Shown here: piece by piece, positions 1 to 10,574 of the stretch
Position numbering within the stretch: the stretch's first letter is position 1
Layout of the letters: the number at the start of each line of letters is the position of its first letter
Origin: Planococcaceae bacterium UBA3370
Lineage (GTDB): Bacteria; Bacillota; Bacilli; Bacillales_A; Planococcaceae
Direction: 5' to 3'
Assembly (NCBI GenBank): GCA_002360295.1
Contig: DEQI01000152.1
Location: 575 to 11,148 of the forward strand
Length of the DNA stretch: 10,574 nucleotides
The notes under the pieces: model-generated
Seen by the model: the letters and a program-made list of their open reading frames with translations, nothing else
The model's database searches: none
What the model was told of the DNA's origin: nothing
Made by a program: the position numbers and the translations under genes

Positions 1-1113
1 AACGGTGTAGATTTAGGTACGTATAATGAAAACTATATGTATCAACAAGGTACAGCAGTTTCAAAAAGCAATTTACAAAAAGGGGATCTAGTATTTTTCA
101 AAAGTAAAACAACAGGTACAGATCCTGACCATGTAGGTATTTACATCGGTGATAATAAACTACTTCACATGGCAGACTCTAAGCAAAATATCGTTATTTC
201 TGATATGAATAGCAAACCATATTACACTGAAAATTATTATGGTGCACGTCGCGTTTTACCATCTTTATTATCTGCAAATCCTGCAACTACAGGTGATAAA
301 ATCGTAGAAAACGCCATTAAATATAAAAACAAAGTAACAATTGGCTCTACGAATAATGCTTCACAATTACGCTTTACAGCTGGTGGGTTTGTCGATTATA
401 TATATAACCTTAGTGGTGTTAAATTAAATGCAACAAATACGAATTTAAGCTCATTAATGAAGCTAGGAACTACTGTATCTAAAGCTAACTTAAAGAAAGG
501 TGATTTAGTATTCTTTAATAGCTCAACTGGGTCTTCAACTCCTTCACTTGTAGGGATTTATGCAGGTGATCACCGTGTTATTATTCCAAATTCAAGTGGT
601 GTTATGACACGTGTATTATTAGTAGATTATTATAAAGAGCATTATATTACGGCAAAACGTGTCATTACAGGAAATAGTACTGGTACTGGTTCTGATTCTA
701 GTACTGGGTCTAATTCTGGTTCTAGCACTAACACAGCGGCAGCTAATAAAATTGTCACAACTGCAACAAACTTAATGTCAAAAGCAAAATTTGGCTATGG
801 ATATAATGAAAGCACTCTTACGTTTACGAGTGGTGGCTTCTCTTATTATGTCTTTAAACAGAACGGCATTGATTTAAAGGACAAGCTTGCTAGCCGCCAA
901 GCTACAGTTGGTACAGCCGTACAAAAGGCAAATCTTCAAAAAGGTGATCTTCTGTACTTATCCAATAATAACGATCGACAAAAGATTGTAAATGTTGGTA
1001 TATACATTGGCGGTAATCAGTACATTATGATGTCGACAAACGGTGTAGTAAAAGAAAATATTAACTCTACATGGACAACTAAAAATTATGTAAAAGCACG
1101 TCGAGTTTTATAG
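1..1113 (+). CDS. NlpC/P60-like repeat protein, 5'-truncated by the window, last two repeats lacking catalytic residues
   Basis: The frame is open from base 1, so the ATG at 37 is internal and 370 residues are present. Three copies of the C-terminal half of an NlpC/P60 fold are visible, each with N-L-x-K-G-D-L followed by V-G-I-Y-x-G and ending in (A/K)RV. NlpC/P60 enzymes are Cys/His peptidases that cut cell-wall stem peptides. Copy 1 keeps the expected His (codon 130-132, DHVGIYIG) and a second His in LLHM; its Cys box would lie upstream of the window. In copy 2 the DCSGF box reads TAGGF (Cys to Ala, codon 379-381) and the His is Leu (547-549). In copy 3 it reads TSGGF (Cys to Ser, 829-831) and the His is Asn (991-993). 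A Ser/Gly/Thr-rich linker lies between copies 2 and 3. The protein is presumably exported, but its N-terminus is not visible. The dead repeats may bind wall or act as spacers. Confidence 0.85.
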   Translation, partial: NGVDLGTYNENYMYQQGTAVSKSNLQKGDLVFFKSKTTGTDPDHVGIYIGDNKLLHMADSKQNIVISDMNSKPYYTENYYGARRVLPSLLSANPATTGDKIVENAIKYKNKVTIGSTNNASQLRFTAGGFVDYIYNLSGVKLNATNTNLSSLMKLGTTVSKANLKKGDLVFFNSSTGSSTPSLVGIYAGDHRVIIPNSSGVMTRVLLVDYYKEHYITAKRVITGNSTGTGSDSSTGSNSGSSTNTAAANKIVTTATNLMSKAKFGYGYNESTLTFTSGGFSYYVFKQNGIDLKDKLASRQATVGTAVQKANLQKGDLLYLSNNNDRQKIVNVGIYIGGNQYIMMSTNGVVKENINSTWTTKNYVKARRVL

Positions 1114-1253: not shown

Positions 1254-2645
1254 TTATTTATTACCTGTTTTTAATTGGCGCGCGAACTCTATCATAGCTT
1301 TACTTGACATGGGGCCTTTTATTAATACCATACATTGATCGTTTAATTTTGGCTGTAGCAATTCTATTACTCCCGTAACATCTTTAAACATATGAACTTC
1401 AGCTTTAATTTTATCTCGCAACGCCTGCTTACCAATGTCCTCTGCCCTACTCCCTATCGTAATAAGGATACTTATATTTTGCTTCGCTACAAGTGATCCG
1501 ATTTCACGATGATATTTTTGTTCAAAGTTCCCTAAACGTTTAATATCTCCAAGAATAACAATTTGTTTTTTATCTTTACCTACTGAACTTAAAACTTTTA
1601 ATGCTGCTTCAATGGAGGTCGGGTTATTTGTCCATGTATCATCAATTATTGTGCTATTCCCTAATCCTTTTGAAAACTCCAAATGACGTTCCATATTTTT
1701 AAAAGATCTTAATCGCAATATCGCTTTTTGAATACTGACTCCCATTTCATTTACTGCAGCTAAAGCTGCCAATGCATTATAAACTTGGTGATCCCCATAA
1801 CCAGGAATAAAAACATTATAGCGCTCTTTATTTTTATGCAATATAAATTTCATACCGCCTGCTGAATATTGAATTTTGCTCGCTTTATAATCAGCATCCT
1901 CCTGGAAACCAAACCTAACAATTTTCCCTTTAAACTGTTGAAGTGGTATTTTTTTCGTATTTTCATCATCTGCGTTAATGATTAACGTTCCGCCTTCACG
2001 AATACCATCTATAATTTCTGATTTCGCCTTAATATACCCTTCTAAATTTTTACAACCATCTAAATGATGAACACCAATATTCGTAATGATGCCAATTGTA
2101 GGTTGATAAATCATACATTGATGAGCGATATTACCAGAGTTCCCTAGTCCTAATTCAAAAATAGCAGCCTTCGTATGATTTTCTATCCCCGTTAAATACG
2201 GAAGGGACTGTCTTGGTTCGTTAATGCTACTTATCGTTGCTTGTACTGGCCAATCTTTTGATAAAATATGCCGAATCATCTCTTTTGTAGTTGTCTTTCC
2301 ACAAGTTCCTGTTAATGCAACAACTGGAATGTTAAATAGCTCTCTATAATGTTGAACGAACATCCAAAAAGCTTGCATCACATTTTTCACGTGTAATACT
2401 GTGGTTGAGCTTCGAGCACGCTGAAGTTCTTCTTTACTTTTATCAGAAACGATGGCAATGGGAGATATTTTATTTAACTCTATCCAATCGATACGATCTC
2501 CTTTACTAATAAAAACCAGTGAATTAGGTTGAGTTAGGTCATGTCGTAAATAATTTATCGCCTGTTTCACAAAAAAGGTAGTCGGGCCGTTTATTACTTG
2601 AGCCCTAAGTATTTGTTGTAGTTCGCTTACAAGTATTGGTCGCAA
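1254..2645 (-). CDS. MurF-like Mur ligase paralog 1
   Basis: Mur ligases join an amino acid or peptide to a carboxylate through an ATP-made acyl phosphate. With the TTG start at 2645 the protein is 463 aa, normal for MurF. Seen in order: an N-terminal domain of about 105 aa; P-loop GTCGKTTT (113-120); FELG with the Mg-type Glu (163-166); TNIGVHH (188-194); AKSE with the Lys that is carbamylated in Mur enzymes (K208); GDHQVYNALAA (from 284); DDTWTNNP (335-342, MurF-like); and LGD with a downstream His (375-389). The N-terminal DSR motif that contacts the UDP-sugar substrate in MurE/MurF is absent. The upstream in-frame ATG (2663) precedes the Shine-Dalgarno GGAGGGAGGA and probably the transcription start, so TTG, 7 bases after GGAGG, is preferred. 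It closely resembles the ligase at 7063-8445. Activity as a ligase is likely; the substrate is unknown and probably not that of housekeeping MurF. Confidence 0.85.
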   Translation of the reverse strand: MRPILVSELQQILRAQVINGPTTFFVKQAINYLRHDLTQPNSLVFISKGDRIDWIELNKISPIAIVSDKSKEELQRARSSTTVLHVKNVMQAFWMFVQHYRELFNIPVVALTGTCGKTTTKEMIRHILSKDWPVQATISSINEPRQSLPYLTGIENHTKAAIFELGLGNSGNIAHQCMIYQPTIGIITNIGVHHLDGCKNLEGYIKAKSEIIDGIREGGTLIINADDENTKKIPLQQFKGKIVRFGFQEDADYKASKIQYSAGGMKFILHKNKERYNVFIPGYGDHQVYNALAALAAVNEMGVSIQKAILRLRSFKNMERHLEFSKGLGNSTIIDDTWTNNPTSIEAALKVLSSVGKDKKQIVILGDIKRLGNFEQKYHREIGSLVAKQNISILITIGSRAEDIGKQALRDKIKAEVHMFKDVTGVIELLQPKLNDQCMVLIKGPMSSKAMIEFARQLKTGNK

Positions 2646-2651
2646 GTATAT

Positions 2652-2661
2652 TCCTCCCTCC
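2652..2661 (-). promoter_or_regulatory. Shine-Dalgarno that sets a TTG start
   Basis: On the minus strand GGAGGGAGGA sits directly over the first codons of the longer reading frame, whose ATG is at 2663. A TTG follows at 2645-2643 with a 7-base spacer. This makes the ATG an accidental in-frame codon and TTG the likely start. Confidence 0.75.
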
Positions 2662-2665
2662 ATTG

Positions 2666-2694
2666 TATCGTATGCACTTTTTCTATTTGTCGTT
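2666..2694 (-). promoter_or_regulatory. Candidate sigma-K-like promoter for Mur ligase 1
   Basis: Read on the minus strand, CATACGATA (2674-2666) fits the CATANNNTA -10 consensus of sigma-K and also CATACNNT of sigma-E. AACG (2694-2691) lies 16 bases upstream and matches the short -35 (mAC). The predicted transcript begins near 2660, at the Shine-Dalgarno, giving a very short leader. Assigned by consensus only. Confidence 0.5.
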
Positions 2695-2719
2695 TGGGTT
2701 TAATGGATAAAACTAAAGA

Positions 2720-2751
2720 CGGCTAGTTGTCCCTGTGAGAACAATTAGCCG
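2720..2751. repeat. Inverted repeat, possible terminator of the His/Cys-rich gene
   Basis: Arms CGGCTAGTTGT (2720-2730) and ACAATTAGCCG (2741-2751) form an 11-bp stem with one G-T wobble and a 10-base loop. On the minus strand it is followed by a moderately T-rich run (GTCTTTAGTTTTATCC), so it may end the transcript from 3199. There is no clean T-tract. Confidence 0.5.
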
Positions 2752-2971
2752 GCAACTATTTTGAAATGATTAGAGGAGTTTTTTTGATTTCCGATTCATA
2801 ATTATTTAAAAGGTGTGAGGTAGTTTTCAACTATATATGAGCCTATTTTAAACTATTTACTATATAAATACTCTAACTGCCTAAACTACTTTTCTTTGTA
2901 CTGGTAACAAAGAAATAGCAAATACGCCTAATTCTCATTCCATCTTCAACCGACTAAATTACTTACGCCCA
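2752..2971. other. AT-rich intergenic stretch without a convincing gene
   Basis: Together with 2646-2751 this makes a gene-free interval of over 300 bases between Mur ligase 1 and the His/Cys-rich gene. A perfect 9-bp inverted repeat (TTTCTTTGT at 2891-2899, ACAAAGAAA at 2907-2915) is the only other structure seen, and it lacks a T-tract on either strand. A short ATG frame with a GAGGAG-like site near 2767 ends after about 11 codons and is not called. Confidence 0.5.
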
Positions 2972-3199
2972 CTATTCTACATCCCCAGAGTATGCATCGT
3001 GTTTATGTCTACCTCTACAGTGACAATGATGATGCGAATGGCAGTGACAGTGAGAATGGCAATGGTGATGCGAAGACCTTGGTGACATGGTAGGCATACA
3101 ATGAATATCAACTGCCTTAAAAGGACCTACATTAACACAACGTCTAGTGTGGCAACGACAAAATGAATCACAGCCACATCCGTGGTGAAAACTACACAT
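2972..3199 (-). CDS. Small His/Cys-rich protein, putative metal-binding or coat-type
   Basis: This is a 75-aa protein with 17 His and 12 Cys. The N-terminal part has a Cys cluster (CGCDSFCRCH, residues 8-17) followed by a more ordinary segment VGPFKAVDIHC (24-34). Residues 44-61 are almost only His, Cys and Ser in HC/HS alternation, and the tail is acidic. There is no signal peptide or membrane segment. The start is well supported: AGGGGGTG lies 7 bases before ATG. Such composition suits zinc/copper/nickel binding or disulfide-crosslinked coat material. I recognise no named family. It sits alone between two minus-strand genes and may be transcribed separately, since a terminator ends the upstream gene. 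Confidence 0.75.
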   Translation of the reverse strand: MCSFHHGCGCDSFCRCHTRRCVNVGPFKAVDIHCMPTMSPRSSHHHCHSHCHCHSHHHCHCRGRHKHDAYSGDVE

Positions 3200-3206
3200 T
3201 TTTTTG

Positions 3207-3215
3207 CACCCCCTT
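3207..3215 (-). promoter_or_regulatory. Shine-Dalgarno of the His/Cys-rich gene
   Basis: AGGGGGTG on the minus strand, 7 bases (CAAAAAA) before the ATG at 3199. It is a strong site and supports this small frame as a real gene. Confidence 0.7.
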
Positions 3216-3313
3216 TCGTCTTTAGATTATTCAATCTTCAAACGAATTGAAGGGCTATTAACTACGAAATGAGAGTTTATTTATCTAAATAACATAGGAT
3301 TTTGCCATAACGA

Positions 3314-3325
3314 GTACAAATGTAC
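3314..3325. repeat. Short palindrome GTACA-AA-TGTAC
   Basis: A perfect 5-bp inverted repeat with a 2-base centre, about 115 bases upstream of the His/Cys-rich start. It may be an operator half of the pair with 3337-3355, or chance. Confidence 0.35.
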
Positions 3326-3336
3326 AATATATTTGA

Positions 3337-3355
3337 ACTATGAATGTTTCATAGT
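3337..3355. repeat. Operator-like palindrome ACTATGAA-TGT-TTCATAGT
   Basis: A perfect 8-bp inverted repeat around a 3-base centre, upstream of the His/Cys-rich gene and just past the terminator of the coiled-coil gene. The size and symmetry resemble a dimeric repressor site. No T-tract follows, so it is not a terminator. Confidence 0.45.
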
Positions 3356-3374
3356 GTATTCCATTTTTATAGGC

Positions 3375-3409
3375 AAAAAAATACCACTCTCGCCTACTTG
3401 GAAAGTGGT
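3375..3409 (-). terminator. Rho-independent terminator of the coiled-coil gene
   Basis: On the minus strand, ACCACTTTC (3409-3401) pairs with GAGAGTGGT (3391-3383) with one wobble and a 9-base loop, followed by A and then T7 (3381-3375). It lies about 60 bases after the stop of the gene at 3467-4372. Confidence 0.85.
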
Positions 3410-3466
3410 TGATGATATTGAACTAAGCCTACTACACAGTGCAACCATATTCTAATACTTAATTAG

Positions 3467-4372
3467 TTATGACCCATCAAATTTACTCCACTTTTTAAAA
3501 ATATTAAATATCGAATTCGATTTTTCTTTCTTTTGCTCTGAAGATAATTGTTGCTCATTTATTTCACTTTTTTCTGTTACTTGAGTTGATCCTATGTCGT
3601 CTTTATTAGTTGAAAAATCATTAATAGAAGATTCAATTATATGTGATAATGGGCTATCTTGTTTTTCGCTACTTTCCTCAATTGCGGTTACAGCATTCCC
3701 CTCCTTTTCTATTAGATCTTCCTCTTTTTCAACGACATTTTTAAAGCGCATGGCCGGTTTCTTCTCCTTGTTTTTATAAAGAATGTTATAAATGTGATTA
3801 GGAAATGTTTCAGTTCCTCGGAAATATTGTTCATTAAAATGTTTATCTAGCAGCATGATTTCTTCGTTATTTTGTTGTAAAGGAAGTGGTTTATTTTGCG
3901 GTGTATCATTTGAGATAAACGTTTTACCAGCTATTCGCTGTAAGTCATTAAACGTGGGTATATTAGTAGGCCGATTTTCAAAATGAGCAGACTTCTTACT
4001 TTCCTCTATAGACTTTTGAGTATGAGGAATAGTTTCGCCACTTTGTCGGGCTAAACTAGTTGCTTTGCTCTGCGATAATTGATTCAGAATAGTTGATATT
4101 TCTGCATTCATATCCTCTATAGATATTTTAATACATTTAAGCTGCTTCATTACATCTATTCCATATCTATTATTTTGTTGGGTAGAATCACCATTTTCCT
4201 TTAAGATTTCACATTGTGAAACTTGTATTTTCAAGTCATCTAATTCACTTTGCATCCGTAATAATGCTTCAGTTGTATGTCCATTTTTTAAAGTAACTAA
4301 TGCAGCTTGATATGAAGCCACTTTCTGTTGCAAAGATTTTATTTTTTGTGTGTTTAACATGGAATCCTTCAT
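3467..4372 (-). CDS. Hypothetical coiled-coil protein with acidic low-complexity C-terminal half
   Basis: This 301-aa protein belongs to no family I recognise. Residues about 6-60 and 73-103 are helix-prone with heptad-like hydrophobic spacing (KIKSLQQKVASYQ). Residues 136-200 look more globular, with FNDLQRIAGKTF (141-152) and an aromatic stretch FNEQYFRGTETFPNHIYNI (179-197). Residues 211-285 are rich in Glu, Ser, Lys and Asn and probably disordered. A short amphipathic basic tail (IFNIFKKWSKF, about 288-298) ends the protein. There is no signal peptide or membrane helix. ATG at 4372 has GAAGGAGTG 9 bases upstream. The gene is monocistronic, with a terminator after it and a divergent neighbour at 4586. 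The architecture resembles scaffold-type spore morphogenetic or coat proteins, but this is only inference. Confidence 0.8.
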   Translation of the reverse strand: MKDSMLNTQKIKSLQQKVASYQAALVTLKNGHTTEALLRMQSELDDLKIQVSQCEILKENGDSTQQNNRYGIDVMKQLKCIKISIEDMNAEISTILNQLSQSKATSLARQSGETIPHTQKSIEESKKSAHFENRPTNIPTFNDLQRIAGKTFISNDTPQNKPLPLQQNNEEIMLLDKHFNEQYFRGTETFPNHIYNILYKNKEKKPAMRFKNVVEKEEDLIEKEGNAVTAIEESSEKQDSPLSHIIESSINDFSTNKDDIGSTQVTEKSEINEQQLSSEQKKEKSNSIFNIFKKWSKFDGS

Positions 4373-4396
4373 CCTATTTCACTCCTTCCAGCTCAT

Positions 4397-4438
4397 ACCT
4401 ATTTTATTTAATATTATTAAGTTATGTTCCAAATAGGT
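4397..4438. repeat. Inverted repeat around the coiled-coil gene promoter
   Basis: ACCTATTT (4397-4404) and AAATAGGT (4431-4438) are perfect 8-bp complements separated by 26 bases. They bracket the candidate -10 box at 4418-4426 in the divergent intergenic region, a layout that could serve a regulator. It may also be chance in AT-rich DNA. Confidence 0.35.
4418..4426 (-). promoter_or_regulatory. Candidate sporulation-type -10 box for the coiled-coil gene
   Basis: CATAACTTA on the minus strand fits CATANNNTA (sigma-K -10). No mAC -35 element is found at the expected 16-17-base spacing, so support is partial. Confidence 0.35.
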
Positions 4439-4537
4439 AAAATAATCAATTTTTATTAGGTAACTATACAATAAAAATATTATTTTAATTATCTTGTTTA
4501 GAACAATTTAAAAGCCTATGCACTAATGTTTGTAAGA

Positions 4538-4546
4538 CATATGATA
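4538..4546 (+). promoter_or_regulatory. Candidate sporulation-type -10 box for the Cys-rich beta protein
   Basis: CATATGATA fits CATANNNTA. It lies 39 bases before the ATG at 4586, a sensible leader length. No clear -35 element is seen at 16-17 bases. Confidence 0.4.
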
Positions 4547-4569
4547 CAAACGAAAGTAAAATTTTAAAT

Positions 4570-4576
4570 GGAGGTG
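4570..4576 (+). promoter_or_regulatory. Shine-Dalgarno that moves the start to 4586
   Basis: GGAGGTG overlaps the in-frame ATG at 4568, so that ATG cannot use it. The ATG at 4586 is 9 bases downstream and is the likely start. Confidence 0.75.
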
Positions 4577-4585
4577 TCAATTTAT

Positions 4586-5221
4586 ATGCAAGAGATTATG
4601 CAATCACAAGCACGGGAACGTATTTGTATTAATGTCGATAAAGTATTTGATTGGATAGTAAAAGAATTATCATTCGAATTTTCTAAAAACCACATTCATT
4701 TCCCATGCTTACCGGAGCACGTAAATACACACAATGCTGTTGTTACATGTAAAGTTGTACCTGATCCACATTTTCCAGTAGTTGTTTTACACCGCGAAGA
4801 TCGTCATTTTACGATTGATGGTAGATCTGTTACTCTGCAACAAATCACGCTTCAAAAGAAATTCTTAGTGACAGTATTCGTCACATTAGCAAATGGAACT
4901 GTCCTAAAAAGTGAAGAAATCCATGTTTCACGTAACGAGCAAGTGATTTTATGTGCACCTCGAGGCACTGAAATAGAAGTAACTTATACAAATTTAGATT
5001 GTTTTGTTGCTTCCACTGGAGAAATTCACAGACATGATGATAAATTATCATTCTCTGATTTACGTATTGTAGTAACAGTTTGCCAAAGCATCCAGTCTAC
5101 ATTCCCAGTAACAGTTGAATTTTTAGCTGAATACTGTGAACCACGAGATGAAATCGTAACTTCTTGTGGTACGGCAAATCGCCCAAGAAATTGCTCGGGT
5201 ATTTTCCCTAGTCATTCTTGA
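4586..5221 (+). CDS. Hypothetical Cys-rich, beta-rich protein (putative spore surface type)
   Basis: This is a 211-aa protein with nine cysteines and no signal peptide or membrane segment. After a short helical N-terminus (residues about 1-30, with INVDKVFDWIVKEL) the sequence alternates hydrophobic and polar residues typical of beta-strands (KFLVTVFVTLANG, EQVILCAPRGTEIEVTYT). A second beta segment, LSFSDLRIVVTVCQSIQSTF (about residues 155-174), follows. The C-terminal tail is Cys/Arg/Asn-rich (CGTANRPRNCSG) and looks flexible. The composition fits small disulfide-bonded coat or exosporium proteins of spore formers; I cannot name a family. The in-frame ATG at 4568 overlaps the Shine-Dalgarno and is rejected as start. 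A strong terminator follows, so the gene is transcribed alone, divergently from the coiled-coil gene. Confidence 0.8.
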   Translation: MQEIMQSQARERICINVDKVFDWIVKELSFEFSKNHIHFPCLPEHVNTHNAVVTCKVVPDPHFPVVVLHREDRHFTIDGRSVTLQQITLQKKFLVTVFVTLANGTVLKSEEIHVSRNEQVILCAPRGTEIEVTYTNLDCFVASTGEIHRHDDKLSFSDLRIVVTVCQSIQSTFPVTVEFLAEYCEPRDEIVTSCGTANRPRNCSGIFPSHS

Positions 5222-5251
5222 TAGTGCTATCTACTAAAAGAACATCATACG

Positions 5252-5285
5252 ATAAAGAGAGGGTGCCCCCTCTCTTTATTTTTTT
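5252..5285 (+). terminator. Strong Rho-independent terminator
   Basis: A perfect 12-bp stem (5252-5263 with 5268-5279) with a TGCC loop and a run of seven T (5279-5285). It separates the Cys-rich protein gene from the following operon, which must have its own promoter or depend on readthrough. Confidence 0.93.
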
Positions 5286-5330
5286 ACATATTTATACATA
5301 GTGGCCCTTCATGCCCTTGTATATTCAATT

Positions 5331-5335
5331 GGAGG
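5331..5335 (+). promoter_or_regulatory. Shine-Dalgarno that sets a TTG start
   Basis: GGAGG lies 7 bases before the TTG at 5343. The longer frame beginning with GTG at 5301 has no such site in front of it and starts just after the terminator. Confidence 0.7.
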
Positions 5336-5342
5336 CGATACA

Positions 5343-5927
5343 TTGACTCATCAAAAGGATGACATAGAGGAGATTATAAAAAGCTTAGCGCATCAAACGA
5401 AACACTATGTTGATGAAATTAAAAAGAGGATTGAGCAAATACCTATAGTAATTAACAAAACTCTAATCAGTTACTTTACTACTTCCATTAATATTTCACA
5501 TCCTATTGAACAAGAAAGCCTATGCTTAGGCTCCTATCATATTCGAAATACAGGCAATCAGCTTATTACAAACCCATCTATTTGTATTAAACTTCCTGAA
5601 GGTTCCCCTTTTTCATTTTCAGGGAAATATGTATATGGACAAATGAAGCCAAATAGCAATGATACAATTATTTGGGAACGGATAAATGATACTAAAAATA
5701 AAAGTGAGTTTTGGCTAAAACCTATTGAACAAATATCAATAATGCCCAATGACACGATTTCTTTTTCAAACTTCCAAATTTCATGGCCTAATCATCCATC
5801 TTATAGTGGCATCATTTCAGGGATTACGTATTGTGATGAAATACCTGAAGGAATTGAAGTTGTTAACCCGATTAGTCTTAGTGGAATGAATAATTCGTTA
5901 GGAGATGAGCATGGATATAACGAATGA
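5343..5927 (+). CDS. Hypothetical beta-rich protein, first gene of a three-gene operon
   Basis: This is a 194-aa protein beginning at TTG. Residues about 3-45 form a charged helix (DDIEEIIKSLAHQTKHYVDEI). The remainder is beta-rich with Gly/Asn/Pro turns, including YHIRNTGNQLITNPSICIKL and MKPNSNDTIIWERI, reminiscent of an immunoglobulin-like or DUF11-type sandwich; that comparison is by appearance only. It has three cysteines and no signal peptide or membrane segment. Its 3' end overlaps the next gene by 17 bases, implying translational coupling. The function is unknown. It may be a structural partner of the helical and coiled-coil proteins encoded behind it. Confidence 0.78.
   Translation: MTHQKDDIEEIIKSLAHQTKHYVDEIKKRIEQIPIVINKTLISYFTTSINISHPIEQESLCLGSYHIRNTGNQLITNPSICIKLPEGSPFSFSGKYVYGQMKPNSNDTIIWERINDTKNKSEFWLKPIEQISIMPNDTISFSNFQISWPNHPSYSGIISGITYCDEIPEGIEVVNPISLSGMNNSLGDEHGYNE
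5901..5904 (+). promoter_or_regulatory. Shine-Dalgarno for the 100-aa gene
   Basis: GGAG inside the end of the preceding gene touches the ATG at 5905 directly. It has a 6-base spacer to the ATG at 5911, so the latter is the likely start. Confidence 0.6.
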
Positions 5928-6213
5928 AAAAGAGCTAGAATTGTTGATGAAACGTCTATTACATGATTATTTAAATGAGCACCTTGCCCAGCTAAAAGAA
6001 TCAAACAGGGAGTCTAATAATAGTTTTGTTTTCCTTGAAAAAAGCACATTAAATAGACTGATTAATTATATATTATCGGGCACGACAAATAAGAAACAAC
6101 AAAGCTTAGGAGAATTAGATGAGTCGCAAGTTCGATTACAACTTCAACAATTAATGAATCAAAATAAAGAAGAATATGAAGAAATACTAGCCATGCTAAA
6201 AAATCTTACATGA
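5911..6213 (+). CDS. Small hypothetical helical protein, middle gene of the operon
   Basis: This 100-aa protein is almost entirely helix-prone and charged. Residues 5-30 form an amphipathic helix (KELELLMKRLLHDYL). A central helix contains FLEKSTLNRLINYIL, and a Glu/Gln/Leu-rich C-terminal helix (QVRLQLQQLMNQNKEEYEEI) could pair as a coiled coil. It has no Cys, Trp, signal peptide or membrane segment. It overlaps the upstream gene by 17 bases and is followed after 13 bases by the long coiled-coil gene, so the three products are probably made together and may form one complex. Not recognised as a named family. Confidence 0.72.
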   Translation: MDITNEKELELLMKRLLHDYLNEHLAQLKESNRESNNSFVFLEKSTLNRLINYILSGTTNKKQQSLGELDESQVRLQLQQLMNQNKEEYEEILAMLKNLT

Positions 6214-6226
6214 AAGGAGATTTTTT

Positions 6227-7042
6227 GTGGATAATGATAGCGTAAAAAATAAAGACTACTTCCAAATGCAACAAAACATTATTTTTTTAAAATCAGAGTT
6301 AATGAAATATCAAAATGAAGTAAAAAAACATGAAGAAAGCGATTATTATTCACTAACTATCAGTCTTGAGCAAGAAAATGCCTATTTAAAAAGTGCTATG
6401 CAAGAACTTTCAAGGGAACATCACGACTTAAAAGTTCAGCTTGAAAAAACAAAAAAAGATGAGCAAGAAATCAACAACTTATTGGAAAAGCAGCAAATAA
6501 AACAACTTGAAACAATAGAGGCTTTACAAAGAGAAAATGAAGAATTAATCATAGCGAATAAACATATAAAGGAGTCTTTATATACTATTCAAACTGAACT
6601 ATCTACTATTATCCTAAACAATCAAAAAATGAATGAAACTAACACAATGAAAGCCATTGAAAAGTTAGAACTTCAATTCCATGACTTTACCTATCAATTG
6701 CTGCAACAATTACATCTGATAAACGAAACATTAGAACAAAAGAGCATTCATGCTGTCGATCAATTGATCAACGAAAAAACGAACGAAACGAAACCCCTTA
6801 TAAAAGAGATCTTAAAATATCAACAACAACAGGAGTTATACCTAGAGAAAATCGTTTCGAATGGCAATTCTCACACGCATTTTGATTTAGAAACATTTTC
6901 TCATTTAAAAGTGAAAATACAAAAAATATTATCTCAATCTCTGGATTTCGAACAGCAATTAGATGAAAAAATGAAAATACTACAAGAATTGGATCAAAAA
7001 ATAAGTGAGTTATCTGATGAAATGGATGAAAATCCTCTATAA
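6227..7042 (+). CDS. Long coiled-coil protein, last gene of the operon
   Basis: This 271-aa protein starts at GTG, with AAAGGAGA 7 bases before it. Nearly its whole length is coiled-coil-like: Glu/Lys/Gln/Leu-rich heptads from about residue 12 to 120 (SLEQENAYLKSAMQELSRE). A second helical block runs about 120-200, and a C-terminal one about 225-265 (KILQELDQKISEL). It has no Cys or Trp, and Pro occurs only near residue 189 and at the extreme C-terminus. There is no signal peptide or membrane helix. It is likely a rod or scaffold protein acting with the two upstream gene products. A terminator that also serves the convergent Mur ligase follows directly. Confidence 0.8.
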   Translation: MDNDSVKNKDYFQMQQNIIFLKSELMKYQNEVKKHEESDYYSLTISLEQENAYLKSAMQELSREHHDLKVQLEKTKKDEQEINNLLEKQQIKQLETIEALQRENEELIIANKHIKESLYTIQTELSTIILNNQKMNETNTMKAIEKLELQFHDFTYQLLQQLHLINETLEQKSIHAVDQLINEKTNETKPLIKEILKYQQQQELYLEKIVSNGNSHTHFDLETFSHLKVKIQKILSQSLDFEQQLDEKMKILQELDQKISELSDEMDENPL

Positions 7043-7048
7043 TAAGTG

Positions 7049-7078
7049 AACACCACCAATGCTTATTTTGGTGGTGTT
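7049..7078. terminator. Terminator hairpin overlapping the end of Mur ligase 2
   Basis: AACACCACCAA (7049-7059) and TTGGTGGTGTT (7068-7078) form a perfect 11-bp stem with an 8-base loop, followed on the plus strand by TTCATTTTC. The stop codon of the minus-strand ligase (7063-7065) lies in the loop, and the right arm encodes its last residues (TPPK). The minus-strand T-tract is weak. Confidence 0.8.
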
Positions 7079-8445
7079 TTCATTTTCAAATGGGCTGCTA
7101 ATTCATGAATGGTTTCGCTATACATATCCCCTTTAATTAATATAACCGTTTCCGAATCAGCCAATTTTTCTACTAATTCATAAACAAAGAGATTATTTCT
7201 GAAATTATATATTTGTGCATTTAACCCTAATGCGCGCACTTTATCAGCCATAATCGCTGCATGCTCTCCCACTGTAATTAGTATATTAACCCCATGCTTA
7301 TTTATAATTTCACCTGCTTGCTCATGAATGACATATCCCCATGAGCCAAGATCTGTTATTGTTCCAATAATAGCGATTTTTTTCTTACCTTTTCCAATGG
7401 CATTTAGTACTTCTAATGCAGCATCTAACGAAGTTGTCGTGATACTCCATGTATCATCTATCAAAACAGCATCATTCACGCTTTTGAAAAATTGAAGTTG
7501 TTTATTTAGTGGACGATACGTTTTTAAACGATTAATCGCTTCTACTAAAGGGATGCCCATTTCATGTACGGCTGCTAGTGCAGCTACCGCATTATATACT
7601 TGATGTTCTCCGTAGCCAGGGACAAATGCTTGATATTGCTTTTGAGCATGATGAACAGTAAATTGCATGCCATGTTTACCATATTTTATATCACTCATCC
7701 GATAGTGACTATTTTGCTTTCCAAAACGGATAATTTTGCCCGGGAAATAATTCGTGTCTATTTTCAGAATATTCAGGTCATCACCATTGATTATTAGCGT
7801 ACCTTTATCCAATATTTGTAGCATTTCTGCTTTTGCATTTATATAAGCTTCCTGCGTTTTGCAATAATTTAAATGATGTGATCCAATATTCGTTATGATG
7901 CCAATTGTCGGCTTATAATAACGACCTGCCAATAATACATCTCCCGGTGAACCTACTGCAGTTTCAAATACACCGGCTTCCGTCTGATGGTTCATTTTCA
8001 ATAAGTTTTGCAATGTCTCTGTTCTTGAATTATTACTTAATGTTGTTGCGACTACTTGGCGATCTGCTAATAAAATATGTTTGATCATTTCCTTTGTCGT
8101 GGTTTTACCAGATGTACCTGTAATTGCAACAACAGGGATTTGAAATTGATTTCGATAACGCTCAACAAAATGCCAGTAAGCTTCATCCAAATTACTCACT
8201 TTTATGAGGATTACACCAACTGGTACTTCATTTTTTTTATACTGCCACTCTGATACTAAAATAAGCGGAAAATGATTCATGATAGTTGACCAATTAATGA
8301 TTCGGGTATTCATAAAAAGAATTGTATTGGGATGTTTAACTTGTTTTAATCTATATGCGCCAAATTTAATCGTTGTATCATGATTACCTTGCAAAAGTTC
8401 CCCTTTAATAATTTTTAATACTTCTGAAACGGTAGTATGTTTCAT
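7063..8445 (-). CDS. MurF-like Mur ligase paralog 2, with altered C-terminal motifs
   Basis: Full-length Mur ligase of 460 aa, a clear paralog of the one at 1254-2645. Seen in order: P-loop GTSGKTTT (110-117); FETA (160-163), keeping the Mg-type Glu but not the usual LG; ITNIGSHH (184-191); AKAE with the carbamylated-type Lys (K205); GEHQVYNA (from 279); DDTWSITTTS (330-339), where the Asn-Pro of MurF's DDxYNANP is lost; and IGTITDLG (370-377), where the Asp of LGD is lost, although the His at about 384 remains. The N-terminal DSR substrate motif is absent. The ATPase core looks intact, so it probably still activates a carboxylate, but C-terminal substrate handling must differ from MurF. The ATG at 8466 lies before the Shine-Dalgarno, so the ATG at 8445, with an 8-base spacer, is chosen. 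The gene is divergent from the ATP-grasp gene. Confidence 0.85.
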   Translation of the reverse strand: MKHTTVSEVLKIIKGELLQGNHDTTIKFGAYRLKQVKHPNTILFMNTRIINWSTIMNHFPLILVSEWQYKKNEVPVGVILIKVSNLDEAYWHFVERYRNQFQIPVVAITGTSGKTTTKEMIKHILLADRQVVATTLSNNSRTETLQNLLKMNHQTEAGVFETAVGSPGDVLLAGRYYKPTIGIITNIGSHHLNYCKTQEAYINAKAEMLQILDKGTLIINGDDLNILKIDTNYFPGKIIRFGKQNSHYRMSDIKYGKHGMQFTVHHAQKQYQAFVPGYGEHQVYNAVAALAAVHEMGIPLVEAINRLKTYRPLNKQLQFFKSVNDAVLIDDTWSITTTSLDAALEVLNAIGKGKKKIAIIGTITDLGSWGYVIHEQAGEIINKHGVNILITVGEHAAIMADKVRALGLNAQIYNFRNNLFVYELVEKLADSETVILIKGDMYSETIHELAAHLKMKTPPK

Positions 8446-8452
8446 ATTATGT

Positions 8453-8463
8453 CCCTCCTCCCT
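8453..8463 (-). promoter_or_regulatory. Shine-Dalgarno that moves the Mur ligase 2 start
   Basis: AGGGAGGAGGG on the minus strand directly follows an in-frame ATG (8466-8464) and precedes the ATG at 8445 by 8 bases. The same arrangement occurs at Mur ligase 1. Confidence 0.75.
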
Positions 8464-8470
8464 CATTCTC

Positions 8471-8479
8471 TATCTTATG
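8471..8479 (-). promoter_or_regulatory. Candidate sigma-K-like -10 box for Mur ligase 2
   Basis: CATAAGATA on the minus strand fits CATANNNTA and sits just upstream of the Shine-Dalgarno, exactly as at Mur ligase 1. The -35 region reads AATC at the 16-base spacing, a partial match only. Confidence 0.45.
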
Positions 8480-8551
8480 TCCATTCAAAAAAGTTGATTG
8501 GATGAATGTTTAGTCAGTACGTGATACTTAACCAATCCAACCTTTTTACGG

Positions 8552-8579
8552 TTCATACATATAGAAAGATATCTATAAT
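8552..8579 (+). promoter_or_regulatory. Candidate promoter of the ATP-grasp gene
   Basis: TTCATA (8552-8557) and TATAAT (8574-8579) with a 16-base spacer resemble a sigma-A promoter (4/6 and 6/6 matches). CATACATA (8554-8561) in the same place partly resembles a sigma-E -10 box. The sequence alone does not decide which is used. Confidence 0.35.
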
Positions 8580-8593
8580 ACGACAGAAATAGT

Positions 8594-8601
8594 AAGGAGT
8601 G
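8594..8601 (+). promoter_or_regulatory. Shine-Dalgarno that sets a TTG start
   Basis: AAGGAGTG overlaps the in-frame GTG at 8599, which therefore cannot be served by it. TTG at 8608 has an 8-base spacer from GGAG. Confidence 0.7.
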
Positions 8602-8607
8602 AAAAAA

Positions 8608-9819
8608 TTGAAGACCATTCTCTTTATAGGTACTAACAAAACAGGTTCAAGCCGAGATGCCATTAAAGCTGCTGAGAAATTAGGCTATTTTACTGTTCTA
8701 TTCACGAATAATGAAAAACAATTACAACAAAGAGAAGCTTATCCAGATGTTCATAAAATGGTTTATGTTGATATTACAAAAATGACTTCAATGAAACATG
8801 CGATTAATCAGCTTATAAAAAGTAGTTTTGAGATTGTGACAATTGTTAGCTTTGTTGATCCGTATGTTCATACTGCTTCTATTCTTTGTGATGAATTTTG
8901 TCATAATTACACGAATTCAGCGGCCATAAAAGCAATGGAGGATAAGGAAGAAACGAGAAATTTTCTAAAAGACTACCCGTTTACTCCTAAATTTTTAGTA
9001 TTAAATGATGGAGATCCTATTTCAGCAATTAAAATGGGGTATCCTGTTATTATTAAATCACCTAAATCAACAGGCTCAAAAGATGTGTTACTTGCTAATA
9101 ATAAAAAACAAGTAGAAAAACATATTCTATATTTACGAGAAAAATACCCCAAAGATACGGTTATGCTTGAGGAATATCTAGATGGGCCACAATATTTAGT
9201 AGAAACGATTATATATAATAAACAACCACATATAATCGGTGTAATGGAGCAAGAAATTACCCATGGTAAACGATTTATTATTACAGGTTATAGTGTGCTA
9301 GCGAGTGTACCTAGCAAAATGCTCGAAAAATTACAAGAAATCGTAAAATCAATCGTGACTGCCTTTGATATAAAAAATGGAGCTATGCATTTAGAGCTTC
9401 GTTTAACAAAAGCTGGGTGGAAGCTAATTGAAATTAACCCTCGTATATCAGGTGGCGCTATGAACAAAATGATTCATGCAGCTTTCGGTTTCAGTTTAGT
9501 TGAGGAGACACTGAAGCTTTTTTTAGGTCAAAAACCTGATATTACACCCAAATATAAAAATTTCGTTTTCACCAAATATATAGTCCTTGGGCGAAAAGGG
9601 ATTCTTGAAAAAGTGACTGGCAAAAATAGAGCTAGTCATTCCCCTGGGGTAGTCGATGTGTATATTAAACCGAAAAAAGGGACATTATTAATACCACCTC
9701 TTTCGATGGGACACCGATATGCCTATGTAATAGCTACAGGGGCTACAAAATATGAAGCCAAACATAATGCTATTACAGGGGCAAAGGAGATCAAGTTCCA
9801 TTTAAAAGTAGATAAATAA
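8608..9819 (+). CDS. ATP-grasp ligase resembling L-amino-acid (dipeptide) ligases
   Basis: ATP-grasp enzymes of this type activate a carboxylate as acyl phosphate and join it to an amine. The 403-aa protein has an N-terminal Rossmann-like pre-ATP-grasp domain (residues 1-100, ILFIGTNKTGSSRDA), then the ATP-grasp core: VIIKSPKSTGSKDV with the ATP-binding Lys (K150), EEYLDG (188-193), VETI (E199), HLELRL (E263) and LIEINPRISGG (E275, N277, R279), the metal-binding signature. The C-terminal region, with GHRYAYVIATGAT and a following EAKHNAITGAKEI, matches in style the C-terminal domain of BacD-type L-amino-acid ligases. No catalytic residue appears missing. The TTG start is set by AAGGAGTG; the GTG at 8599 overlaps it. 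It lies between two MurF-like ligases, divergent from one and convergent with the other, suggesting a shared amide-forming pathway. Substrate unknown. Confidence 0.87.
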   Translation: MKTILFIGTNKTGSSRDAIKAAEKLGYFTVLFTNNEKQLQQREAYPDVHKMVYVDITKMTSMKHAINQLIKSSFEIVTIVSFVDPYVHTASILCDEFCHNYTNSAAIKAMEDKEETRNFLKDYPFTPKFLVLNDGDPISAIKMGYPVIIKSPKSTGSKDVLLANNKKQVEKHILYLREKYPKDTVMLEEYLDGPQYLVETIIYNKQPHIIGVMEQEITHGKRFIITGYSVLASVPSKMLEKLQEIVKSIVTAFDIKNGAMHLELRLTKAGWKLIEINPRISGGAMNKMIHAAFGFSLVEETLKLFLGQKPDITPKYKNFVFTKYIVLGRKGILEKVTGKNRASHSPGVVDVYIKPKKGTLLIPPLSMGHRYAYVIATGATKYEAKHNAITGAKEIKFHLKVDK

Positions 9820-9848
9820 TAGAAAAGCACAAGAGTTGGATGGCTCTC

Positions 9849-9876
9849 AAGCGAAAGCAGCTTATCGCTTTCGTTT
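9849..9876. repeat. Hairpin after the ATP-grasp gene without a T-tract
   Basis: AAGCGAAAGC (9849-9858) pairs with GCTTTCGTTT (9867-9876), 10 bp with one wobble and an 8-base loop. It begins 29 bases after the ATP-grasp stop. AAGGGC rather than T follows, so on its own it is a weak terminator; it may stabilise the 3' end or be part of a dispersed repeat. Confidence 0.45.
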
Positions 9877-9927
9877 AAGGGCTTGGCGCTCGAGATAGAC
9901 AATATTACTTTCTTTTATCAAAATAAT

Positions 9928-9961
9928 AAAACGGGAGTGTCCACAATGACGCTCCCGTTTT
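9928..9961. terminator. Bidirectional Rho-independent terminator
   Basis: A 14-bp stem (9928-9941 with 9948-9961, one T-G wobble) has a CACAAT loop. On the minus strand it is followed by TTATTATTTTGAT after the TTTT of the stem and ends the third Mur ligase gene. On the plus strand TTTTGTCTATTTT follows and can stop the ATP-grasp transcript. Confidence 0.88.
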
Positions 9962-9963
9962 GT

Positions 9964-10574
9964 CTATTTTCCATCAAACCGTTTTGCTATAAACTGCACG
10001 GTTTCAAACATATTTGTTTTACTTGCGCCTTTTACGAGAATCGTATCTCCTCTTTTAATGAGCTTTTCTAGCAAAGCATGAAGCTTTTCTTTATTCGTAA
10101 AATGGTACATATTTTTTTCATTAAACCCTTTTTGTTTCGCTGCCTCATTCATTTCTTCTGTTCTAAAACCGTACGTAATAAAAATATCAATGCCTTGAAC
10201 CGTTACATATTCGCCCACTTTTTTATACTCTGCCTCACGTAAATCGCCAAGCTCCCTCATTTGCCCAATAATGGCCACTTTACGTTTTTTACTAATCGAT
10301 GTTAAAACATCAAGCGCTGCCTTTACTCCCTGTGGATGTGAATGAACTGTATCGTCAATCAACGTAATGTTTTGATTACAACGATAAATAGTGAGTCTCC
10401 GTGGTGGTTTTTTGAATACGAGTCCTTTTTTAATATCCTCAGCAGAGAATCCTAAATAATGTGCAATGGCCACTGCGTTTAATGCATTATAAACATGGTG
10501 TTCTCCTAAAATCGGGATGAAGAATTCTACTACTTTACCATCTAGTTTCATTTTAAATGCCATTCCATCATCTT
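9964..10574 (-). CDS. MurF-like Mur ligase paralog 3, C-terminal part only
   Basis: The frame is open to the window edge, so the start lies beyond 10574 and the apparent ATG at 10563 is internal. The visible 202 residues cover the end of the central ATPase domain and the whole C-terminal domain. Seen: GEHHVYNALNAVA (Mur-type His and Asn), DDTVHSHPQG in place of DDxYNANPxS, GQMRELGDLREAEY in place of LGDMxELG with its His (His is Tyr here), and LVKGASKTNMFE in place of KGSRGMxME. It is more diverged from the other two ligases than they are from each other. The P-loop and carbamylated Lys are outside the window and cannot be checked. It converges on the ATP-grasp gene across a shared terminator. 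Confidence 0.85.
   Translation of the reverse strand, partial: DDGMAFKMKLDGKVVEFFIPILGEHHVYNALNAVAIAHYLGFSAEDIKKGLVFKKPPRRLTIYRCNQNITLIDDTVHSHPQGVKAALDVLTSISKKRKVAIIGQMRELGDLREAEYKKVGEYVTVQGIDIFITYGFRTEEMNEAAKQKGFNEKNMYHFTNKEKLHALLEKLIKRGDTILVKGASKTNMFETVQFIAKRFDGK

What the first reader, a model, noticed from the sequence alone, without database searches (positions are those of the whole stretch)
1254..10574. Three MurF-like ligases clustered with an amino-acid-ligase-like ATP-grasp enzyme: possible non-ribosomal peptide or polymer pathway in sporulation
Seen: three separate Mur-ligase genes and one BacD-like ATP-grasp gene within about 9 kb, interleaved with Cys/His-rich and coiled-coil proteins. 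Known: both superfamilies form amide bonds through acyl phosphates and are fused in cyanophycin synthetase; single Mur-type ligases also make poly-gamma-glutamate (CapB/PgsB). Inferred: together they could make or attach a non-standard amide-linked product during spore formation. I know of no named system with this exact gene set.
Basis: partly seen in the sequence, partly recalled or inferred. Interest (0 to 1): 0.72.

Follow-up and report, generated by a model that had tools for sequence, protein, structure and literature searches.

The report
Spore gene cluster of peptide-bond ligases
Many spore-forming relatives of Lysinibacillus carry a conserved gene cluster of several enzymes of the kinds that join amino acids without ribosomes, one of them built like the enzyme that makes the storage polymer cyanophycin, so these bacteria may make an undescribed peptide-like product for their spores.

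Summary
The window (Planococcaceae, Solibacillus-like) has two whole MurF-like genes, the end of a third, and an amino-acid-ligase-type ATP-grasp gene, around spore-coat genes. All four genes lie within 12 kb in 59 of 62 fusion-bearing genomes of 200 sampled; all 62 are SpoIVA-positive (153 of 200). A canonical murF exists besides (20 of 20 tested). The short Mur domain is also fused to YheC/D in the opposite order and, in one protein each, to the LAL-type ATP-grasp and to a MurA1-like ligase, so the parts very probably act together. Its standalone relatives neighbour CapA (16 of 28 loci), the reverse fusion an Asp/Glu racemase (5 of 5), hinting at an acidic, D-amino-acid-containing product. 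Most likely: a mother-cell pathway making a non-ribosomal peptide or polymer for outer spore layers. The product is unknown; protein modification and peptidoglycan remain rivals. Not a CphA or PgsB family member.

The parts
1..1113 (+). NlpC/P60 protein with three repeats, 5' end cut by the window; conserved neighbour of MurA1. Repeats 2 and 3 lack the Cys and His; the first keeps both in full-length relatives (read by eye)
   Evidence: Pfam PF00877 2.9e-44, 3 stretches; NlpC in 28 of 30 fusion loci; residues read
1254..2663 (-). MurA1: MurF-like ligase; likely true start TTG at 2645 behind GGAGGGAGG
   Evidence: start read by eye
2666..2696 (-). putative mother-cell promoter of MurA1: C-N21-CATACGATA
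   Evidence: CATAnnnTA upstream of MurA1 in 15 of 32, controls 28 of 308
2972..3199 (-). 75-aa Cys/His-rich protein with a CVNVGPFKAVDIHC segment, resembling the N-terminus of the BclB-type exosporium protein beside the coat block in L001-L003
   Evidence: TIGR03721 136.9 bits for the L003 protein; similarity read by eye
3467..4372 (-). coiled-coil-like coat-block protein, 301 aa
   Evidence: no Pfam or NCBIfam match; protein of like make-up in the same position in L001-L003 (by eye)
4568..5221 (+). BMQ_0737 family morphogenetic spore coat protein
   Evidence: NF052457 180.7 bits, cut-off 71; relatives L001-L003
5301..5927 (+). coat-block protein, 208 aa, no known family
   Evidence: similar ORFs in L001-L003 (by eye)
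5905..6213 (+). coat-block protein, 102 aa
   Evidence: only sub-threshold Pfam matches
6227..7042 (+). coat-block coiled-coil-like protein, 271 aa
   Evidence: similar ORFs in L001-L003 (by eye)
7063..8466 (-). MurA2: MurF-like ligase, paralogue of MurA1
8471..8501 (-). putative mother-cell promoter of MurA2: CCA-N19-CATAAGATA
   Evidence: C[CT]A-N19-CATAnnnTA upstream of MurA2 in 11 of 32, controls 1 of 308
8599..9819 (+). ATPg: L-amino-acid-ligase-type ATP-grasp enzyme
   Evidence: LAL_C2 8.1e-19, ATP-grasp_4 1.5e-18; best PDB relatives 3vot and 4wd3, L-amino acid ligases; ATP-grasp motifs invariant in an alignment of 32 sequences
9964..10572 (-). C-terminal 202 aa of the YheC/D ATP-grasp-Mur ligase fusion; its N-terminus lies beyond the window
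   Evidence: Mur_ligase_C 1.1e-18; 97% identical to the end of the 743-aa P0127; fusion architecture

Best explanation
The locus is one functional unit: a sporulation-specific, ribosome-independent amide-bond pathway. SHOWN: MurA1, MurA2, a LAL-type ATP-grasp and a YheC/D ATP-grasp-Mur fusion are linked, confined to SpoIVA-positive genomes in the family sample, and keep the conserved motifs of their superfamilies. INFERRED: the mother cell expresses them. The LAL-type ATP-grasp and the two MurF-like enzymes make or load short peptide units. The fusion works like cyanophycin synthetase: its ATP-grasp and Mur sites take turns activating carboxylates as acyl phosphates, so the growing chain is extended at one site and branched or extended at the other. 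Since the Mur half lacks MurF's N domain (which binds UDP in MurF; recalled), the acceptor is probably a free peptide or a protein-bound chain rather than UDP-MurNAc-peptide. Associations of the Mur half elsewhere (CapA, NlpC/P60, Asp/Glu racemase) point to an acidic, perhaps gamma- or beta-linked, D-amino-acid-containing product. It would be deposited on or attached to the outer coat or exosporium, beside CotZ-like proteins, with the NlpC/P60 protein as its trimming hydrolase.
For: Linkage: all four ligases within 12 kb in 59 of 62 fusion genomes; 30 of 30 mapped fusion loci have MurA1, MurA2 and ATPg, 28 NlpC, 21 a CotZ-like gene just upstream on the same strand. Spore link: all 84 ATPg-positive and all 62 fusion-positive genomes are SpoIVA-positive, 153 of 200 overall. 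Apart from wall synthesis: one MurF over cut-off (417-432 bits) elsewhere in the genome plus the three cluster Mur ligases below it (233-271 bits) in 20 of 20 of the fusion genomes tested. Fusions among the 360 listed proteins of three searches: YheCD-Mur 122, Mur-YheCD 51, MurA1-Mur 1, ATPg-Mur 1; the two YheCD fusions are separate clades. In L142 most of the set (no MurA2 seen) occurs with YheC/D and the short Mur as separate neighbours. Model of the fusion: among listed PDB matches only CphA1 entries align over more than 500 residues (511-553; all other rows at most 384). Motifs kept. Promoter-like boxes. Company of the short Mur: CapA 16 of 28, NlpC 7 of 28; reverse fusion: Asp/Glu racemase 5 of 5.
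Against: No product, expression or proteome data were found. No racemase or CapA match lies in the fusion-bearing Planococcaceae loci themselves (about 18-19.5 kb each), so the acidic or D-amino-acid idea is carried over from distant relatives. Standalone Mur relatives also sit beside an S11 DD-peptidase in 6 of 28 loci and beside none of these genes in 4; the former fits peptidoglycan as well. The CphA1 match has rmsd 24-27 over both halves (the domains are arranged differently, or the model misplaces them; pTM 0.56). The promoter box is missing upstream of the fusion itself (CATAnnnTA 2 of 30, long form 0 of 30) and shows no excess at NlpC (3 of 27), the ~430-aa YheC/D (0 of 19) and the 145-aa gene (2 of 18). 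The ATPg+YheC/D pair exists without Mur ligases in many genomes and on Priestia plasmids, so part of the set works alone. ATPg-Mur and MurA1-Mur fusions rest on one protein each. Counts are not corrected for kinship.
Confidence: 0.5

Rival explanations
1. Protein modification: the ligases add amino acids or short chains to side chains or the C-terminus of coat/exosporium proteins (CotZ-like, the 145-aa CPCGV protein), as tubulin-tyrosine-ligase or RimK enzymes do. No free polymer is made.
For: A YheC/D relative (L070) scores just over the TTL and RimK gathering scores, and the fusion's YheC/D half matches the MptN alpha-L-glutamate ligase profile weakly (31 bits); a CotZ-like gene lies directly upstream of the fusion in 21 of 30 loci; B. 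[quoted passage not shown]
Against: Needs no CapA or racemase, yet the Mur half keeps such company elsewhere. I saw no obvious acidic acceptor tail on the CotZ-like or 145-aa proteins printed (read by eye). Several Mur-type ligases for one protein tag would be unusual (judgement).
Confidence: 0.25
2. Sporulation-specific peptidoglycan: MurA1, MurA2 and the fusion are alternative MurF/peptide ligases for cortex or germ-cell-wall precursors, in a group whose vegetative wall has lysine and whose cortex has diaminopimelate (recalled, not read here).
For: Nearest curated family is MurF for all three; NlpC/P60 neighbours; S11 DD-peptidases beside 6 of 28 standalone relatives.
Against: A canonical murF is present as well (20 of 20). 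The extra MurE that a diaminopimelate cortex would need exists but is unlinked: 2-3 MurE over cut-off in each of 20 genomes. The fusion has no MurF N domain, and profile alignment of MurA1 and MurA2 with the canonical MurF begins only at its column 92 and 84. The YNAAPTS motif of the canonical copies is replaced in all three.
Confidence: 0.15
3. Small-molecule pathway: the cluster makes a dipeptide or other small amide (bacilysin-like antibiotic, germination signal or metallophore) during sporulation rather than a structural product.
For: ATPg belongs with L-amino-acid dipeptide ligases (3vot, 4wd3) and LAL_C2.
Against: I noticed no transporter or tailoring gene recurring in the maps, but the neighbours were not annotated systematically; close company with structural coat genes.
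Confidence: 0.1

Closest known systems
Cyanophycin synthetase CphA1
   Different: No room for the CphA N domain; the ATP-grasp is YheC/D type; TIGR02068 scores 55.5 bits against a cut-off of 850; Mur half nearest MurF; spore context; extra ligases; product unknown.
Poly-gamma-glutamate synthetase PgsBCA/CapBCA with PgdS
   Same: N-domain-less Mur ligases beside CapA and NlpC/P60 proteins in distant relatives; the cluster NlpC protein has repeated domains of which some are degenerate, as in PgdS (PMC5880399, passages).
   Different: No TIGR04012 PgsB in 30 of 30 cluster genomes tested; the short Mur domain's listed NCBIfam matches are led by MurF and do not include PgsB; PgsC not searched; a different NlpC repeat is intact (second in PgdS, first here).
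YheC/YheD endospore coat-associated proteins
   Same: Pfam ATPgrasp_YheCD domain; in B. [quoted passage not shown]
   Different: B. subtilis YheD is of unknown function (PMC7911427, passages) and single-domain (recalled); here the domain is fused to a Mur ligase and linked to three more ligases.
L-amino-acid ligases (BL00235, BacD group)
   Same: ATPg has the ATP-grasp core and LAL_C2 domain; 47.6 bits to 3vot.
   Different: Distant; conserved in a spore cluster; substrate unknown.
MurF (UDP-MurNAc-tripeptide--D-Ala-D-Ala ligase)
   Same: Middle and C domains, P-loop, AK.E lysine and H.V.NAL-type motifs (their roles recalled).
   Different: Below the MurF cut-off; N-terminal region not aligned (MurA1, MurA2) or absent (fusion); YNAAPTS motif changed; separate clade from the canonical MurF.

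Membership tests
Cyanophycin synthetase CphA1 (TIGR02068) | Full-length profile over the curated cut-off (850 bits) | tested here: not met
   55.5 bits (fusion) and 50.7 bits (reverse fusion), Mur part only
Cyanophycin synthetase CphA1 (TIGR02068) | ATP-grasp domain followed by Mur domain in one chain | tested here: met
   PF14398+PF08245+PF02875 precomputed for the 120 listed fusion relatives; order YheCD-Mur by BLAST; model aligned to 7lgq with first and last residues 8 and 731
Cyanophycin synthetase CphA1 (TIGR02068) | N-terminal N domain | tested here: inconclusive
   The fusion begins directly with the YheC/D region and seems to have no room for it, but no N-domain profile was run; alignment to CphA1 starts at its residue 163
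Cyanophycin synthetase CphA1 (TIGR02068) | Makes beta-Asp-Arg polymer | not testable with these tools
   needs enzymology
PgsB/CapB (TIGR04012) | Match of any gene of the cluster genomes, cluster ligases included | tested here: not met
   0 of 30 genomes at E<=1e-10 (30 of the 62 fusion genomes); B. subtilis control rings
MurF (TIGR01143) | Score over the curated cut-off of 288.6 bits | tested here: not met
   268.6 and 238.6, 258.3 for the fusion; the canonical copies score 417-432
MurF (TIGR01143) | N-terminal domain, in the fusion | tested here: not met
   Mur part starts just before the P-loop, preceded by linker and YheC/D domain
MurF (TIGR01143) | N-terminal domain, in MurA1 and MurA2 | tested here: inconclusive
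   They have an N-terminal region of their own; local HH alignment with canonical MurF starts at its column 92 and 84, which does not exclude a diverged domain
YheC/D ATP-grasp (PF14398) | Domain over the gathering score | tested here: met
   Neighbouring and relative proteins 118-203 bits, reverse fusion 168.3 bits; precomputed PF14398 on fusion relatives
L-amino-acid ligase type ATP-grasp (LAL_C2, PF18603) | LAL_C2 and ATP-grasp domains over gathering scores | tested here: met
   68.1 and 67.3 bits against 29.4 and 27
L-amino-acid ligase type ATP-grasp (LAL_C2, PF18603) | Dipeptide ligase activity | not testable with these tools
   needs enzymology

The most novel reading that the evidence does not exclude
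An undescribed class of spore polymer: a branched or side-chain-linked acidic poly-amino acid with D-residues, made in the mother cell by ATP-grasp/Mur bimodular synthetases that arose more than once by fusion (YheCD-Mur, Mur-YheCD, LAL-Mur) in Bacilli and Clostridia. It would form or anchor part of the coat or exosporium and would give the long-mysterious YheC/YheD coat proteins their function.
Probability: 0.3. Interest if true: 0.92.

Novelty: new variant of a known kind. Interest (0 to 1): 0.74.

Why it matters
YheC/YheD-type ATP-grasps are spore coat-associated proteins of unknown function. Finding them fused, in both orders, to a MurF-like ligase tells what chemistry to look for and makes the question testable with one mutant and one purified enzyme. 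If a product exists, endospores have a non-ribosomal component beside protein, peptidoglycan and glycans, which bears on exosporium assembly, spore surface charge and the origin of polymer synthetases such as CphA.

Tried and rejected
Plain dcw-like wall cluster: rejected, a canonical murF and 2-3 murE lie elsewhere in 20 of 20 genomes (that the canonical murF lies in the dcw cluster is assumed, its neighbours were not read). Canonical poly-gamma-glutamate operon: rejected, no PgsB in 30 of 30. Plasmid-borne origin of the window: not shown; the closest plasmid homologues of ATPg (Priestia pBM300, pBM600 and others) are about 48% identical. Coat block as part of the conserved ligase set: rejected, its BMQ_0737 gene is in 0 of 30 fusion loci, and the block sits elsewhere, flanked by folA- and thyA-like ORFs (named by eye), in L001-L003. 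Sigma-K box with a textbook AC -35: weak (3 of 32 for MurA1, 0 of 32 for MurA2, 3 of 54 for ATPg); C[CT]A at 22 bases upstream of CATAnnnTA fits better but was found by looking at the same sequences, so its p-values are optimistic. PgdS orthology of the NlpC protein: not shown; the best PDB relatives are general cell-wall hydrolases. Chemical specificity from the Mur acceptor motif: not readable. VIA-align listed no ATP-grasp structure by itself, as one domain can fill its list, so the N half was not separately fold-searched. The ten literature searches listed no paper that I recognised as describing the gene set; the 2009 amidoligase survey (recalled) is not held. mixes true relatives with ordinary MurF at its loose threshold, so its tally of 148 of 398 was not used; the loci were chosen from its and one search's best-listed matches, not at random. 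Loci are 42 of the 84 ATPg-positive genomes, spread by identity. Only 120 of the matches of each protein search are listed. CotZ-like, NlpC and similar labels rest on BLAST and may miss distant copies. Left unused: one structure job, two Foldseek and three VIA jobs.
Full report
WHAT IS THERE. The window holds, from left to right, a 5'-cut NlpC/P60 protein (1-1113+), a MurF-like ligase MurA1 (1254-2663-), a 75-aa Cys/His-rich ORF (2972-3199-), a coiled-coil-like protein (3467-4372-), a BMQ_0737 spore coat protein (4568-5221+), three further coat-block ORFs (5301-7042+), a second MurF-like ligase MurA2 (7063-8466-), an L-amino-acid-ligase-type ATP-grasp 'ATPg' (8599-9819+) and the last 202 aa of a third Mur ligase (9964-10572-). 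The names MurA1, MurA2, ATPg, 'Mc' (short Mur domain) and 'fusion' are my labels. The closest named protein for ATPg is from Solibacillus sp. CAU 1738 (82%). No whole genome is held for the window, so relatives were reached through locus handles.

THE THIRD LIGASE IS A FUSION. In relatives the gene of which the window shows only the end is about 720-785 aa: a YheC/D ATP-grasp of about 350 aa, a linker, and a MurF-like middle plus C domain starting just before the P-loop (precomputed Pfam PF14398, PF08245, PF02875 on the listed relatives). P0127, whose contig has the same length (7826) as that of the 94%-identical ATPg P0001, is 743 aa and 97% identical to the window's 202 aa. So the window's gene is almost certainly this fusion.

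CONSERVATION AND LINKAGE. In 200 genomes drawn from the family of G001 (the genome of locus L003), ATPg is found in 84 at E<=1e-60, the fusion in 62 at E<=1e-150 (in 4 of these as two pieces of one open frame) and MurA1 in 64 at E<=1e-100. All four ligases lie within 12 kb on one contig in 59 of the 62; the three exceptions are one where the fusion lies on another contig (G069), one whose MurA1-like gene is elsewhere (G135), and one whose MurA2 fell under the threshold (G120). Of 43 loci mapped gene by gene (the window, 2 and 40), 30 hold the fusion (the window's fragment not counted): all 30 have MurA1, MurA2 on the same strand, and ATPg; 28 have NlpC; 21 have a CotZ-like gene within 1 kb upstream on the same strand; 18 have a further YheC/D protein (~430 aa) and 18 a 145-aa 'CPCGV' protein; 14 have a second ATPg; none has BMQ_0737. 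Two CotZ-like proteins scanned score 21.2 bits (under the 24-bit gathering score; L056, a fusion locus) and 33.6 bits (over it; L070, a locus without Mur ligases). The interleaved coat block is therefore not part of the conserved set; in L001-L003 it lies elsewhere, with no Mur ligase seen in those loci.

SPORULATION. SpoIVA is in 153 of the same 200 genomes. All 84 ATPg-positive and all 62 fusion-positive genomes are among the 153 (Fisher p 7e-14 and 3e-9, kinship not corrected). CATAnnnTA, the -10 box of mother-cell promoters (recalled), occurs upstream of MurA1 in 15 of 32, MurA2 in 14 of 32, CotZ-like in 17 of 33 and ATPg in 11 of 54 genes, against 28 of 308 unlabelled ORFs of the same loci; with C[CT]A 22 bases upstream the counts are 7 of 32, 11 of 32, 0 of 33, 7 of 54 and 1 of 308. 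The fusion has 2 of 30 and 0 of 30 and may be read from the CotZ promoter; NlpC (3 of 27), the ~430-aa YheC/D (0 of 19) and the 145-aa gene (2 of 18) show no excess. The long form was chosen after looking at the sites. In the window CATAnnnTA boxes precede MurA1 and MurA2. B. subtilis yheC and yheD are sigma-E genes stimulated by SpoIIID (PMC517825, passages), and YheD surrounds the spore, function unknown (PMC7911427, passages).

NOT THE WALL PATHWAY. Each of 20 cluster genomes tested has one MurF over the family cut-off (417-432 bits) and the three cluster ligases beneath it (233-271 bits); they also have further weak matches. Each also has 2-3 MurE over cut-off, none in the cluster. In a tree of 59 Mur domains, canonical MurF, the MurA1/MurA2 group and the short Mur domain Mc are separate, well supported groups; one MurA1-like protein (L141) groups with MurA2, and the tool warned of long branches meeting between canonical MurF and the MurA1/MurA2 group. 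All classes keep the P-loop and the lysine of the AK.E (NKS in the reverse fusion) motif, and nearly the same H..YN.L motif.

FUSIONS LINK THE PARTS. Among the 360 proteins listed by the three searches, best-hit architecture gives YheCD-Mc 122, Mc-YheCD 51, MurA1-Mc 1 (P0295) and ATPg-Mc 1 (P0307, whose ATP-grasp lacks the EINPR motif). In the tree the two orders of YheCD and Mc form separate clades (13 rows, 100/95; 4 rows, 98/95), each with standalone Mc as nearest kin, so they most likely arose separately. The reverse fusion is listed from Caldalkalibacillus, Brevibacillus, Pontibacillus, Rossellomorea, Paenibacillus, Natronincola, Alkalicella and others. In L142 most of the gene set (NlpC, MurA1, YheC/D, Mc, ATPg; no MurA2 found) occurs with YheC/D and Mc as separate neighbours. 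Several genomes without the fusion keep a lone YheC/D 40-49% identical to its N half, as in L070 beside ATPg and a CotZ-like gene.

WHAT THE MUR DOMAIN KEEPS COMPANY WITH. In 28 loci with a standalone Mc (chosen from the best matches), CapA (PGA_cap) is adjacent in 16, an NlpC/P60 protein in 7 of these, an S11 DD-peptidase in 6, YheC/D near it in 2, none of these in 4 (by BLAST). Domain identity was checked by Pfam for 4 CapA, 4 racemase and 1 S11 proteins. The reverse fusion has an Asp/Glu racemase next to it in 5 of 5 loci, in genomes with 3-5 such racemases; the one scanned with NCBIfam scores 160 bits as aspartate-type racemase (cut-off 93) and 216.5 as cysteate racemase (cut-off 190). CapA copies number 1-6 per genome in 16 genomes that have the pair. 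PgsB is absent from 30 of 30 cluster genomes tested.

HOW IT MOST LIKELY WORKS. See Best explanation. Shown: linkage, spore-former confinement in the sample, fusions, kept motifs, absent MurF N domain in the fusion. Inferred: mother-cell expression, joint action on one product, polymer or oligomer nature, acidic or D-residues, outer-layer location, NlpC trimming. I give 0.5 to the coupled pathway with a non-ribosomal peptide or polymer product, 0.25 to protein modification, 0.15 to peptidoglycan, 0.1 to a small molecule.

NOVELTY. ATP-grasp+Mur bimodular synthetases are known from cyanophycin; this one is of other sub-lineages, in another setting, fused more than once and joined by three further ligases. 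I call it a new variant of a known kind. My ten literature searches listed nothing that I recognised as a description of the gene set; I saw listings and abstract starts only, apart from the passages cited, and subscription journals are mostly missing from that library.

Noticed in passing
window 2972-7042: A coat block (BMQ_0737 and neighbours) sits between MurA1 and MurA2; its BMQ_0737 gene is in none of 30 fusion loci mapped, while in L001-L003 a similar block lies between folA-like and thyA-like ORFs.
   Followed up: partly
L006 3525-5952, L007 7091-9496, L008 10824-13230: Priestia megaterium plasmids (pBM300, pBM600, pBP01R2a) carry a YheC/D + ATPg pair, with no Mur ligase annotated in the stretches shown.
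   Followed up: partly
L148, L149, L152, L153, L160, L161, L163, L168, L172-L177, L179, L180: A MurF-like ligase without N domain stands next to a CapA-type gene in many Bacilli, with NlpC/P60 in seven of these loci: possibly another unrecognised polymer or peptide system.
   Followed up: partly
L150, L164-L167, L170: The same short Mur ligase lies beside a compact S11 DD-peptidase gene, overlapping it in L150.
   Followed up: no
L043:12228-12668:+ and 17 further loci: A 145-aa 'CPCGV' protein with no Pfam or NCBIfam match (one example scanned) lies in 18 of 30 fusion loci, between MurA2 and a YheC/D gene in those printed; candidate acceptor or structural protein.
   Followed up: no
P0307: ATPg-Mur fusion whose ATP-grasp lacks the EINPR motif (metal binding, recalled), hinting at a non-catalytic, binding role of that half.
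   Followed up: no
genomes G001 ... G083 (20 genomes): Two or three MurE-family ligases per genome, fitting a separate diaminopimelate ligase for the cortex in lysine-wall species (recalled).
   Followed up: no
window 1-1113: Of the three NlpC/P60 repeats the second and third lack the catalytic Cys and His (read), recalling PgdS, where only one of three repeats works (PMC5880399, passages).
   Followed up: partly
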